A DNA stretch of 64,000 bases from Fontisphaera persica (GTDB lineage Bacteria > Verrucomicrobiota > Verrucomicrobiia > Limisphaerales > Fontisphaeraceae): assembly GCF_024832785.1 (NCBI RefSeq), contig NZ_CP116615.1:4464001-4528000 (forward strand), in the 5' to 3' direction. The notes below the pieces were generated by a model. It was given only the letters and a program-made list of their open reading frames with translations, was not told the DNA's origin and did not search any database. Below, in pieces: positions 4,622 to 51,617 of the stretch. Position numbers and translations under genes: made by a program. How positions within the stretch are numbered: the first letter of the stretch is position 1; every line of letters starts with the position of its first letter.

Positions 4622-5028
4622 GGATTTCGGAAAGGCTGTAAGCCGAATTCTGTCTGCCTCCTGGCGGAGGGAGAGAATCATTTCTCTAAGCGGCCCATAC
4701 CCGGGACCGGCCCGCCTTGGGGGCGGGACTGGAGCGAGCCACTCCGCGGTCCCCTATTTGGCCTTGCTCCCGATGGGGTTTTCCGTGCCGCCTTGCTTGC
4801 GCTTGGCGCGGTGCGCTCTTACCGCACCTTTTCACCCTTGCCGCCGGGTTGCCCCGGAGGCGGTTTGTTTTCTGTGGCACTGTCCGTCAGCGGCCCTTGA
4901 CGGCCGCTGCCCGCGTGTATCCCGCAGGCCCGAAGGCAGGTGGGTTACGCGGCATCGTGCTCTGTGGAGTTCGGACTTTCCTCCCCCGGCGCGCAGGCCG
5001 GGAGCGATTCTCCGCCTTCCCGAAATCC
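4622..5028 (-). ncRNA. rnpB: RNase P RNA, bacterial class A
   Basis: The minus strand contains the diagnostic conserved elements of bacterial RNase P RNA in the right order: GAGGAAAGTCCGAACTCC near the 5' end, ACAGTGCCACAGAAAA, GGCAAGGGTGAAAAGGTG with GCGGTAAGAGCGCACCG, GGAGCAAGGCCAAATAGGG, and the 3' ACAGAATTCGGCTTACAG. The two ends form a 15-bp P1 helix: 5014-5028 pairs with 4622-4636, with one G-U. That fixes the gene at about 407 nt. It is the catalytic RNA that matures tRNA 5' ends. It is convergent with the secreted-protein gene ending at 4592. Confidence 0.95.
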
Positions 5029-48026: not shown

Positions 48027-48264
48027 AACCACTGCTTACGGAGCATTTTCCGTACCGTAAGGAAGTTTAGGCACGGGACGGCGAATATCGCCAGCGGAAA
48101 TTTCTGCGGATTTCCAGCGTGGGAAAACCTGCCTAAAAGCCACGGGGACAGATGCTTGGGTGTGGTCCGGGCAGCGGCTGAGAGCTTGGGCTTGCGCGCC
48201 GGGTTCATCCATTTGTAACATGCTCATGCTTGTCAGCCAGTTACCGCAGCCGTTAAATGAGCTT

Positions 48265-48750
48265 ATGAAAATTTACCTCTTGCGCCATGCGGAAGCAGCG
48301 GAAGGCACGCCGGATGCGGAGCGGCCATTGACGCGGAAAGGCATTTTGCAAAGCAAGGCGATGGGCCAGTTTCTGGCGGCTCGCGGAGTGAAGTTTGACG
48401 CCGCGTTTACCAGTCCGCTGGTGCGCGCCGTGGAGACGGCCGAGCTGGTGCTGGAGGAAATGCAGGGAAAGAAAAAAGGGGTGAAGTTGCAGAAAACGGA
48501 ACATTTGCTGAACGAGTGCAGCACGCGCGAGTTTGAGGCGTGGCTGAAGGAGCTGGCCGGGTTCAACAAAGTGCTCATGGTGGGGCACAATCCTTCGCTG
48601 TCCTTGCACCTGGCGCGCCTGTTGCACACGCATTCTCCAGTGGCGGTGACCCTGCCCAAGGGGGCGTTGGCAGTGGTCCGGCTTGAGGGCGGGCAGGCGG
48701 TGCTCAAGCTGTTCCTTACGCCCAAGCAGACGGGATTGATGGAGGAATAG
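48265..48750 (+). CDS. sixA: Phosphohistidine phosphatase SixA-like
   Basis: 161 residues from the ATG at 48265, the point where similarity begins (MKIYLLRHAEAAEGTPDAER). The histidine-phosphatase fold has the catalytic LRHAEA, FTSPLVRAVETAELV and the second His in VLMVGHNPSLSLHLARLL. SixA removes phosphate from histidines of phosphorelay or PTS proteins. It is divergent from the kinase gene. An upstream in-frame ATG at 48160 adds a non-conserved leader. Confidence 0.9.
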   Translation: MKIYLLRHAEAAEGTPDAERPLTRKGILQSKAMGQFLAARGVKFDAAFTSPLVRAVETAELVLEEMQGKKKGVKLQKTEHLLNECSTREFEAWLKELAGFNKVLMVGHNPSLSLHLARLLHTHSPVAVTLPKGALAVVRLEGGQAVLKLFLTPKQTGLMEE

Positions 48751-49180
48751 CGGTCAGGGAAGGGTTGGCGTTACGCTGATTTAGTTGATAGACGGCAGGG
48801 GGTGGCTCTCACGGGTGGGGCGGCAAGTCGGTGAGTGGGTGAATCCGGCGGTGCTTTGGCTCAGTTTTTCCGCATGGCGGGCGTAGGATACGTCTCTGCC
48901 CATTGGGCGGTGGCGGCATTCGAGAAGCAGAGGAATGACTTCCCTTCGGCGGGACGCCGAAGGGCACACGCCAGAGGCGTGTGCTCCCCGAGACCTTCAA
49001 TCCCCACCAATTTTTTCAGTCCCATAGGGGCGACATGAAAACCTTTTACCACGAAGGGGTAGAGGGAAAAGGGAGCAGAGCGCGTGAAAGGGAAAAATAA
49101 ACCACGAATGAACACGAATGGACACGAATGTTGAACAGAAGGAAACGAAGAGAACGAAGAGTGAGAAGAGGCCCCTCACC
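48751..49180. repeat. Gene-free region with palindromes and 10-bp direct repeats
   Basis: No credible gene here. CCCTTCGGCG (48942-48951) and CGCCGAAGGG (48955-48964) pair over the triplet GGA. Directly adjacent, GCACACGCC (48964-48972) and GGCGTGTGC (48976-48984) pair over AGA. At 49101-49130 there are three head-to-tail 10-bp units ending in ACACGAATG or CCACGAATG. Short open frames such as 48861-49115 and 48997-49182 are by-products of this repeated sequence. Confidence 0.65.
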
Positions 49181-49834
49181 AAATGAAAGATTGATGCGCG
49201 GCCTGGTGTTCCGAAGCGCGTTCGCTTAAGCCTGGCAATTCTGCAATCACGGAGCCGGGAGGCTCCGTGAACTCGCAGGCGGGACGCCTGCGCTACATCC
49301 CCTCACCCTGGACCTCTCCCCGGGGGGAGAGGGAGGAGTTGTAGCTGCGCAGATTATGCTGCTCTTGGCTTTTTGGCCTGCGGGACGCCTGCGCATGTCA
49401 AATGAAAGATTGATGCGCGGCCTGGTGTTTTTGAAGCGCGTTCGCTTAAGCCTGGCAATTCTGCAATCACGGAGCCGGGAGGCTCCGTGAACTCGCAGGC
49501 GGGACGCCTGCGCTACATCCCGTCACCCTGGCCCTCTCCCCGGGGGGAGAGGGGGGTGTAGCTGCGCGGATTATGCTGCTCTTGGCTTTTTGGCCTGCGG
49601 GACGCCTGTGCCTGGCAAATGAAAGATTGATGCGCGGCCTGGTGTTTTTGAAGCGCGTTCGCTTAAGCCTGGCAATTCTGCAATCACGGAGCCGGGAGGC
49701 TCCGTGAACTCGCAGGCGGGACGCCTGCGCTACATCCCGTCACCTTGGACCTCTCCCCGGGGGGAGAGGGAGGAGTTGTAGCTGCGCGGATTATGCTGCT
49801 CTTGGCTTCTTAGCCTGCGGGACGCAGGCCAGAC
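49181..49834. repeat. Three tandem copies of a repeat of about 218 bp
   Basis: Near-identical units lie at 49181-49399, 49400-49616 and 49617-49834, each starting AAATGAAAGATTGATGCGCG. Each unit contains three hairpins, in copy 1 as follows. ACGGAGCC/GGCTCCGT pairs at 49249-49268. CGCAGGCG-GGA-CGCCTGCG pairs at 49274-49292. CCTCTCCCC/GGGGAGAGG pairs at 49313-49332. Copies differ by a few substitutions and small indels. No open frame spans a unit. The structure fits a REP/MITE-like non-coding element amplified in tandem. Confidence 0.9.
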
Positions 49835-49860
49835 TCGCAGGCGGGACGCCTGCGCTACAT
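49833..49860. repeat. Partial fourth repeat copy overlapping a stop codon
   Basis: The 28 bp from ACTCGCAGGCGGGACGCCTG to CTACAT repeat the middle of the 218-bp unit, including its GGA-loop palindrome. The final bases provide the last Met codon and the TAG stop of the minus-strand Pro-rich gene (49855-51303). Confidence 0.8.
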
Positions 49861-51303
49861 GCTTGGCGGGTGGTCTTTGTTTTCCTTGGCGGGCAGGTGG
49901 CGGCGTTCGCGTTCCATGGACTGGGTAATCAGGCTGGGGGCGGGCGCCGGGCGGGTGCGGCGATGCCATACCACCGCCAGCCATACGGCCAGCGCGAGCA
50001 GTCCTGCGCCGGCTGCCAGGAGGCCATAGGGGGTGGGTGAGGGTTGTGGCACCACGGCTATGGTTGGCGCTGGCGCGGCAGTCGAGGCGGTGTTGGTGGG
50101 GGGGGTGGGGGTGGTTTCAGGGGTTTCGACTTTTGGGGTCTTGGAAGTGGGTGGCGCCGGCTGGGGTGGCGGCTCGGGCGAAGCAGGTTTTGGTGATGTT
50201 TCTGTGCCGGGCGGGGCCGCTGGGGTTTGCGTGGTTACGACGGGGAGATTGCCGGGCGGGGTCACTGCGGTCACTCCGGGGGTGCTGGCGGAGGGAGGCG
50301 ATTTGGGCGGCTCGGACAGCGCCGGGGTGGGCGGTGGCTGGGGTGGACGGGTTGGGTTTTCGGTGGTGAGTTGGGCGGTGGTTTGGGTGGTACCCACGGA
50401 GGGAGGTGGGGCTGGTGCTGGCGGCTTGGGGGCTGGTGGTTCCGGTTTTTCTGTAGCTGGCGGCTTTTGTGGCTGCGCGATGGTGACGGGCGGAGGCGGA
50501 GGCGCTACGGGTGGTTTGGCCTGAGCGGTCGCATTAGTGGCGGGCGGAGGAGGGGGGGTGACGGTTGCCGTTTGGGCATGGGTCACCTGCGCGGGGGGCG
50601 GCGAGGTTTGAACTACAGCAGGTGGCGGCGTCGCGGGTGGAGGCTTGGGGGGCGCGGGCGGCTCGGGCATCCGGGCCACCAGGCGCGTGGGGGCGGGAGG
50701 TTCGGCGGCGCCCACAGCCCAATCCACGAGCTGGCCGCGTTCGGCCACGAGGGCGATGATGCAAATGCTGCGGCGCTCGCGCCAGGTTTCCGCGTGTTGG
50801 CGGAGCACGGCATTGATGTCGGCGTCAAAGGGTGTGCCCAGCATGGGGTAAGCGCCGGAAACGACGAGGTAAAGGTGGAGGTTGCGCTCTTCGCGGACGG
50901 CCTGCTGGAGGATGGCCAGGACGAGGTCAAATCTGGGCTTTTTCTCGAACTTGTATTTTTGCAGGTACAGGAAGGCGAGGTTGCTGATGGGGCGGCTGCG
51001 GGCCGGGTCCCAGGTTTTGCGGGTATAGCCCACGGGGTCTATTTGTTCGTGAAAGGGGAGGATGCTGAAGAGGTCGCCCGCCTGCATGCGGCCGCCGCAG
51101 CCGCGCTCGATGAGGTCGGCCACGGCGAGGGCGACGCGTTCAGAAATGGGTGCAGTGAGGGCGGAGGCTTCGACGAGGAAAAGGTATTTGGCGGGGGTTG
51201 GCGATGGGGGCGCGGGGGCGGGGGCGGCCGCGGCGGCGGCCAGCCAGCTCATGCCCACCAGGAGCCAAACGCTTGCCTGCCGGATGTATTGTGGAATGGT
51301 CAT
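49855..51303 (-). CDS. Exported Pro-rich protein with C-terminal membrane anchor
   Basis: 482 residues from the ATG at 51303, preceded by GAGGCAGCC, with a signal helix (ASVWLLVGMSWLAAAAAAPA). A folded domain of about 190 residues follows (YLFLVEASALTAPISERVAL, LHLYLVVSGAYPMLGTPFDA, ICIIALVAERGQLVDW), whose alternating strands and helices recall a von Willebrand A-like fold without a clear MIDAS. A Pro/Thr/Ala-rich low-complexity region of about 210 residues leads to a membrane helix (GLLAAGAGLLALAVWLAVVW) and a basic tail. The last codon and stop lie in a repeat element, so the original C-terminus may have been longer. Function unknown. Confidence 0.7.
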   Translation of the reverse strand: MTIPQYIRQASVWLLVGMSWLAAAAAAPAPAPPSPTPAKYLFLVEASALTAPISERVALAVADLIERGCGGRMQAGDLFSILPFHEQIDPVGYTRKTWDPARSRPISNLAFLYLQKYKFEKKPRFDLVLAILQQAVREERNLHLYLVVSGAYPMLGTPFDADINAVLRQHAETWRERRSICIIALVAERGQLVDWAVGAAEPPAPTRLVARMPEPPAPPKPPPATPPPAVVQTSPPPAQVTHAQTATVTPPPPPATNATAQAKPPVAPPPPPVTIAQPQKPPATEKPEPPAPKPPAPAPPPSVGTTQTTAQLTTENPTRPPQPPPTPALSEPPKSPPSASTPGVTAVTPPGNLPVVTTQTPAAPPGTETSPKPASPEPPPQPAPPTSKTPKVETPETTPTPPTNTASTAAPAPTIAVVPQPSPTPYGLLAAGAGLLALAVWLAVVWHRRTRPAPAPSLITQSMERERRHLPAKENKDHPPSM

Positions 51304-51617
51304 GGCTGCCTCTTCGGGGGCTGCACGCGGCCACCCTACAACCAAGCGGCTGGCAATGCAATCATCGTCTGCGAGGGCGGGGTGGGCCGGCAGAGGGGGA
51401 TGGTGGGTGCGTCCGTGGGGTGTGGGTGGGCGGGTTTGCGCAAGGGCGGGCGCGATAATTAGGTAAAAAGATGCACAAAAAATGTGTTTTCAAGGCCAGC
51501 TAATCGTATAGACTGCGCGTGATTTGGGGTACGCCCGGGCGTCTGGCGGATGGCCTGCATGGCCGATACGCTCTGGGGGACAAGCCCCGCCTAACATGAA
51601 CCGATGGACATTGGACT
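51304..51617. other. Intergenic region before class I aldolase
   Basis: No gene seen. Around 51470-51515 the sequence becomes AT-rich. A weak promoter-like pair, TGTTTT (51485-51490) and TATAGA (51507-51512) with a 16-bp spacer, could serve the aldolase gene about 100 bp downstream. CACA-AAAAA-TGTG lies just before it. Confidence 0.3.

What the first reader, a model, noticed from the sequence alone, without database searches (positions are those of the whole stretch)
49181..49860. Tandem array of a 218-bp element with three internal hairpins
Three near-identical units plus a fragment lie head to tail, each with three conserved palindromes and no coding capacity. High identity implies recent amplification. 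The array could be a mobile non-coding element, a binding array or a structured RNA source.
Basis: seen in the sequence. Interest (0 to 1): 0.55.

Follow-up and report, generated by a model that had tools for sequence, protein, structure and literature searches.

The report
Tandem cluster of RAYT-type palindromic repeats
A non-coding stretch between two bacterial genes holds three tandem copies of a piece of a repeat family that is scattered all over this genome; it looks like a local amplification of a known type of small, transposase-linked palindromic DNA (REP/REPIN), so it is real but largely ordinary.

Summary
The array is real: three units of about 219, 217 and 209 nt at 49181-49825 (95-96% identical), then a 28-nt fragment at 49833-49860. 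It is one of 28 clusters in this 4.73-Mb single-contig genome. The first two hairpins (H+R) occur 86 times, 82 of them without mismatch to a 34-nt pattern. They are absent from the 38 nearest relatives searched and present in 3 of 320 genomes of the order, the other two with one copy each. Hairpin 2, read on the minus strand, is a GTAG-tagged REP. The same REP flanks the genome's one clear RAYT-type transposase gene on both sides. Hairpin 3 is the known BoxC/intrastrand-triplex motif. The unit is a rearranged piece of a ~203-bp REPIN-like element (two inverted GTAG REPs around inner hairpins) plus BoxC. Best explanation: RAYT-type mobilisation and block copying scattered the element; slippage or unequal exchange between REP half-sites multiplied it locally. 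Tandem REPIN clusters with flanks are already published in Pseudomonas. New here: the probable Verrucomicrobiota host, the REPIN+BoxC mosaic, and 8 of 9 RHS-gene groups within 3 kb of a copy. Relatives lack that link, which suggests hitchhiking.

The parts
49181..49399 (+). array unit 1 (K-N-H-R-T-G-r modules)
   Evidence: 95% identical to unit 2; first copy starts after a truncated BoxC (CCCCTCACC|AAATG)
49400..49616 (+). array unit 2 (reference copy)
49617..49825 (+). array unit 3
   Evidence: 96% identical to unit 2
49813..49860 (+). end of array: full r hairpin GCCTGCGGGACGCAGGC followed by a complete REP; reverse complement of the left end of the ~203-bp element
49247..49270 (+). hairpin H, unit 1 (24-nt palindrome)
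   Evidence: one of 86 genome copies
49467..49490 (+). hairpin H, unit 2
49684..49707 (+). hairpin H, unit 3
49274..49296 (-). GTAG-tagged REP (R), unit 1; reads GTAG-CGCAGGCG-TCC-CGCCTGCG on the minus strand
49494..49516 (-). GTAG-tagged REP (R), unit 2
49711..49733 (-). GTAG-tagged REP (R), unit 3
49836..49858 (-). GTAG-tagged REP (R), terminal copy; its CTAC (49855-49858) supplies the TAG stop codon of the 49855-51345 minus-strand ORF
49300..49333 (+). BoxC / intrastrand-triplex motif, unit 1
   Evidence: motif compared with the E. coli table in PMC4666352
49520..49552 (+). BoxC / intrastrand-triplex motif, unit 2
49736..49770 (+). BoxC / intrastrand-triplex motif, unit 3 (imperfect)
49042..49180 (+). 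C-D block of the same composite repeat (CCACGAATGAACACGAAT..., GAAGGAAACGAAGAGAACGAAGA), ending in a truncated BoxC
   Evidence: mostly 81-91% identical to blocks in other clusters; module map
48900..48995 (-). segment up to 87-90% identical to a palindrome-rich stretch inside orphan RHS genes elsewhere in the genome (possible RHS remnant)

Best explanation
The array is a tandem cluster of a REP/REPIN-type repeat. SHOWN: the unit's second hairpin is a GTAG-tagged REP identical in stem to the REPs on both sides of the genome's RAYT-type Y1 transposase gene. The intact form of the element is ~203 bp, bounded by two inverted GTAG REPs with inner hairpins. The array unit combines the right half of that element (K-N-H-R) with a BoxC/triplex motif and the left-end hairpin. 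The family has 86 H-R copies in 28 clusters. INFERRED: the RAYT cuts and rejoins single-stranded REP DNA and so scattered the element. Once an element lay in an intergenic site, slippage or unequal exchange multiplied the segment between a REP half-site (GACGCCTGCGC...) upstream of K and the r/R hairpins downstream, helped by hairpin and triplex structures that stall replication. The product is near-identical local tandem copies with a period that differs from locus to locus. No host function is needed to explain it; side effects at the 3' ends of the two convergent neighbouring genes are possible.
For: H+R: 86 copies, 82 without mismatch to the 34-nt pattern, reversed-pattern control 0; the H pattern alone also gives 86. 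GTAG-REP pattern 51+56 copies, control 0. RAYT gene at 2809097-2809753, 219 aa, PF01797 above cut-off, with the GTAG REP at 2809017-2809039 and 2809834-2809856. Of 75 RAYT-homologue loci, 16 have GTAG hairpins within 300 bp on both sides, against 0 of 182 background windows. Intact elements of 202-204 bp between inverted GTAG REPs at 8 places. Other tandem arrays with periods 118, 139, 142, 325, 356 and 470 in the 22 fetched regions. Core identity between adjacent same-strand copies averages 0.85, and 0.93-1.0 at the recent arrays, against 0.77 between loci. Junction: units 1-2 end in an r/R fusion GGCCTGCGGGACGCCTG, whereas unit 3 keeps r and a separate R, with GCGGGACGC in each. A REP half-site lies upstream of K in 40 of 77 cores, against 81 of 5000 random segments of the same loci. 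Published precedent: REPIN tandem clusters that include flanks (PMC3116915, passages).
Against: No transposition event, empty site or joint product was seen. The intact copies beside RHS genes share their flanking DNA, so part of the spread is block duplication and not RAYT action. Only one same-genus genome could be compared (no RAYT, no element), which is weak evidence for co-dependence. Most RAYT-bearing relatives lack this particular H-R element. Of the 75 RAYT loci, 59 did not show GTAG hairpins on both sides with my criteria. The half-site is missing before unit 1 and was below threshold before unit 3.
Confidence: 0.8

Rival explanations
1. The clusters spread only by segmental duplication and homologous recombination of intergenic blocks (for example together with RHS genes); the REP is a passenger and the RAYT plays no part now.
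For: The ~100 nt between the element and the RHS start are alike in 9 of the 10 RHS loci aligned, in L047 only in part; modules keep a fixed order over 325-480 bp; 8 of 9 RHS groups lie within 3 kb of an H copy, with 4 of 10000 rotations as good.
Against: 17 of 28 clusters have no RHS core within 5 kb; H-R is far more conserved than its surroundings; the RAYT is flanked by the same REP.
Confidence: 0.3
2. The array has a host function, such as a bidirectional transcription stop, supercoiling control or a protein-binding array between two convergent genes.
For: It lies between the 3' ends of convergent ORFs 48160-48750 (+) and 49855-51345 (-); stable hairpins.
Against: No intrinsic terminator inside the units (2 terminator-like sites in 1.3 kb against 1.2 expected, both at the edges); the family is absent from the same-genus genome and varies in length and place.
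Confidence: 0.12
3. The array makes a structured RNA.
For: RNA fold z -2.9.
Against: No Rfam match there, no sigma-70-like promoter, and the DNA fold is at least as exceptional.
Confidence: 0.03
4. Assembly artefact: a single unit duplicated in the assembly.
For: No reads were available.
Against: Units differ at about 4-5% of positions and one unit keeps a different end; the genome is one contig; similar arrays with other periods exist at other loci.
Confidence: 0.03

Closest known systems
REPINs and their tandem clusters in Pseudomonas fluorescens SBW25 (Bertels and Rainey 2011, PMC3116915; passages read)
   Same: Inverted REP pairs, linked RAYT gene, tandem repeats of near-identical REPINs including flanking sequence, the largest cluster over 700 bp
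   Different: Element here is ~203 bp with extra inner hairpins and is fused to a BoxC motif; about 107 REPs here against 1,053 there; the period differs from locus to locus
BIMEs of Escherichia coli (described in PMC8266576; passages read)
   Same: REP plus inverted REP with linker, frequently in consecutive tandem copies, mostly intergenic
   Different: Different REP sequence; perfect stem without the E. coli bulge; additional H hairpin and BoxC in the repeated unit
GTAG-tagged REP super-family (PMC3733652; passages read), reported there as highly enriched in the verrucomicrobium O. terrae
   Same: GTAG head, 8-bp stem, short loop, inverted pairs
   Different: Not matched to a numbered GTAG family here
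BoxC / intrastrand triplex motif TM (PMC4666352; abstract, first part of results, passages read)
   Same: Reverse complement of CCCTCTCCC[26 protein letters not shown]
   Different: Here built into a larger repeated unit next to a REP; imperfect in the window units

Membership tests
GTAG-tagged REP | GTAG tetranucleotide directly before a 20-50-nt palindrome, many copies, mostly extragenic | tested here: met
   GTAGCGCAGGCG-N2-5-CGCCTGCG: 51+56 copies, control 0; extragenic position judged only for the window and by ORF lists, not for all copies
REPIN | two REPs in inverted orientation at a fixed distance as the repeated unit | tested here: met
   202-204-bp elements with a REP at both ends at 8 places; the window unit itself is a rearranged piece and does not meet it
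REPtron (RAYT/TnpAREP with cognate REP) | Y1 HUH transposase gene flanked by the same REP as the dispersed copies | tested here: met
   HUH string PNHVH seen in the translation
REPtron (RAYT/TnpAREP with cognate REP) | RAYT cleaves and joins the REP in vitro | not testable with these tools
   needs protein
BIME | REP pairs with linker motifs, tandem mosaics | tested here: met
   module map; several tandem arrays
BoxC/intrastrand triplex motif | three consecutive C/T- or G/A-rich blocks of stem 6-15 with loops of 1-6 nt, one mismatch allowed | tested here: met
   CCCTCACCCTGRCCCTCTCCC at 24+27 places with at most 1 mismatch, control 0; E. coli sequences; the three-strand rule was checked by eye only
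Classical MITE | terminal inverted repeats of an insertion sequence with target duplications | not tested
   ends are REPs; target duplications were not examined
CRISPR | short repeats with unique spacers | tested here: not met
   whole 217-nt units are repeated, no unique spacers
Known structured RNA | Rfam match at gathering score | tested here: not met
   the only match in the window is RNase P at 4623-5023

The most novel reading that the evidence does not exclude
In this genome the REPIN-BoxC composite is the recombination substrate by which orphan RHS toxin cassettes are copied and piled up: the element sits at a constant place before the RHS reading frame, and cassette plus element duplicate as one unit, leaving arrays such as the one in the window as scars.
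Probability: 0.12. Interest if true: 0.6.

Novelty: new member of a known kind. Interest (0 to 1): 0.3.

Why it matters
It extends tandem REPIN clusters to a probable Verrucomicrobiota lineage in which an element present as 86 nearly identical copies is absent from the one available same-genus genome, so it is probably young. Arrays with different periods at different loci, with readable junctions at 9-nt repeats inside hairpins, make this a good natural case for how REP clusters grow. The co-location with orphan RHS genes is a testable lead on how those cassettes multiply.

Tried and rejected
CRISPR, Rfam RNA and promoter/terminator readings were tested and dropped. A viral origin was tried: the exact H-R pattern has 0 matches in viral contigs. 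A general link between RHS genes and GTAG hairpins was tried in relatives and failed: of 6 genomes searched, 5 had RHS matches, 39 in all, of which 30 came back as loci, and 2 of those 30 hold any GTAG hairpin. The same-family genome G002 has 28 RHS matches and none of the GTAGCGCAGNCG REPs. So the RHS link is local to this genome and most simply hitchhiking. Covariation tests were not done because H is nearly invariant. Literature searches for RHS with REP/RAYT returned nothing relevant: 'Rhs, REP sequences, RAYT' gave 0 papers, and the 15 papers were seen as a listing with abstract starts only. Searches were also listings. The segment at 48900-48995 also has weaker matches in L046 and L040 that are not clearly inside RHS core genes, so calling it an RHS remnant is tentative.

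Counts and drops: 77 of 86 cores were aligned; six lie outside the fetched regions and three miss the exact-stem filter. RHS matches: 39 rows, entered as 30 positions after merging split matches of one copy. RAYT loci: L126 and L127 (short partial matches) were left out of the 75, which include the own gene; one search looked at 20 of the loci first. One search scored only 40 of 92 first-look candidates, so its 108 matches are a lower bound; the pattern counts cover the whole genome.

Full report
1. Observation. TRF gives 49180-49825, period 217, 3.0 copies, 95% matches. The last 28 nt at 49833-49860 are an exact copy of a 28-nt stretch present in each unit. Unit starts read from the sequence are 49181, 49400 and 49617. 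Unit 2 folds as DNA better than all 200 shuffles. I see no gene in the array; the short ORFs that touch it are mechanical.

2. Genome-wide family. The window lies at 4464001-4528000 of a single 4726914-bp contig, and the unit has at least 108 partial matches in that genome. The first hairpin occurs 86 times. With the first half of the next one attached the count is again 86, 82 of them without mismatch, and the reversed control gives 0. The copies form 28 clusters at a 5-kb gap, 45 on + and 41 on -. Among 39 genomes (own plus 38 relatives) only the own genome has the pattern with up to 3 mismatches. Among 320 genomes of the order 3 have it with up to 2 mismatches: the own genome, and two others with one copy each.

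3. What the hairpins are. Hairpin 2 on the minus strand is GTAG-CGCAGGCG-TCC-CGCCTGCG, a GTAG-tagged REP; 51+56 copies fit the pattern and the control gives 0. The genome has one clear RAYT-type Y1 transposase gene, and the same REP lies on both sides of it, at 2809017-2809039 and 2809834-2809856. RAYT homologues are flanked on both sides by GTAG hairpins in 16 of 75 loci, against 0 of 182 background windows. Hairpin 3 with its upstream block, CCCTCACCC-TGG-CCCTCTCCC-CGG-GGGAGAGGG, is the reverse complement of the E. coli BoxC/TM type listed in PMC4666352. In this genome 24+27 places fit with up to one mismatch.

4. Anatomy. In 22 fetched stretches plus the window, the modules keep one order: C-D-BoxC-G-r-X/Y-K-N-H-R, with members missing here and there (letters are mine). 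An intact form, 202-204 bp between two inverted GTAG REPs, occurs at 8 places. Four-hairpin elements, also bounded by inverted GTAG REPs, occur in other genomes of the order. The window unit is K-N-H-R-BoxC-G-r. The block before the array, 49042-49180, is the C-D module found mostly 81-91% identical in other clusters, cut off inside BoxC. The window's last REP also supplies the TAG stop of the neighbouring minus-strand ORF; the RAYT gene likewise ends in the TAG of a GTAG hairpin.

5. How the array grew (inferred). Other loci carry tandem arrays with other periods: 118, 139, 142, 325, 356 and 470. Neighbouring cores are 0.93-1.0 identical at the recent arrays, 0.85 on average over all 47 adjacent pairs, and 0.77 between loci. 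Units 1 and 2 of the window end in a fusion of the r and R hairpins at GCGGGACGC, while unit 3 keeps both. A REP half-site precedes K in 40 of 77 cores, against 81 of 5000 random segments of the same loci. Direct repeats inside hairpin-forming DNA on both sides of the core are a natural substrate for slippage or unequal exchange. The claim that BoxC/TM sites are unstable comes from PMC4666352 (abstract and passages) and was not tested here.

6. RHS genes. Eight of 9 groups of RHS-core genes lie within 3 kb of an H copy; random rotation gives 0.59 on average and 4 of 10000 reach 8. The sequence between the element and the RHS frame is itself shared among the loci, and relatives show no such link. 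The simplest reading is that RHS blocks and the element were duplicated together. The segment at 48900-48995 beside the window array matches a stretch inside RHS genes at up to 87-90%, so the window locus may descend from such a block; this is tentative.

7. Known or new. Tandem clusters of REPINs including their flanks are described in P. fluorescens SBW25 (PMC3116915, passages). BIMEs in tandem are described in E. coli (PMC8266576, passages). GTAG repeats are reported as highly enriched in a verrucomicrobium (PMC3733652, passages). The array is therefore a new member of a known kind, with an unusual composite unit. The host's phylum was not given by any tool. The two closest named RAYT relatives, at 60% and 56%, are verrucomicrobial MAGs, and Verrucomicrobiota is my inference from that.

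Noticed in passing
genome 2081539-2124655 (outside the window; L040-L042 cover parts): About 19 orphan RHS core copies in a row on the minus strand over 43 kb: a large polymorphic-toxin-like cassette array.
   Followed up: partly
whole genome: Only 3 of 86 H-R copies (1 of 28 clusters) lie in the first 2.08 Mb; all others are in 2.08-4.51 Mb. Origin and terminus were not located.
   Followed up: no
L043-L046, L048, L051, L055, L058, L059: Clusters that hold both orientations always have the minus-oriented copies first and the plus-oriented copies after (head to head), never the reverse.
   Followed up: partly
L061 1792-1825: The RAYT gene's own TAG stop codon lies in the GTAG of a REP-like hairpin; the 49855-51345 ORF of the window ends the same way.
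   Followed up: partly
window 49100-49165 and many clusters: CCACGAATGAACACGAATGGACACGAAT followed by GAAGGAAACGAAGAGAACGAAGA, a module that accompanies most clusters.
   Followed up: partly
L047, genome 3108459-3109577: RHS orphan with a C-terminal Aspzincin_M35 metallo-endopeptidase domain, a likely toxin tip.
   Followed up: no
window 4623-5023 (-): RNase P RNA class A, 227.7 bits.
   Followed up: no
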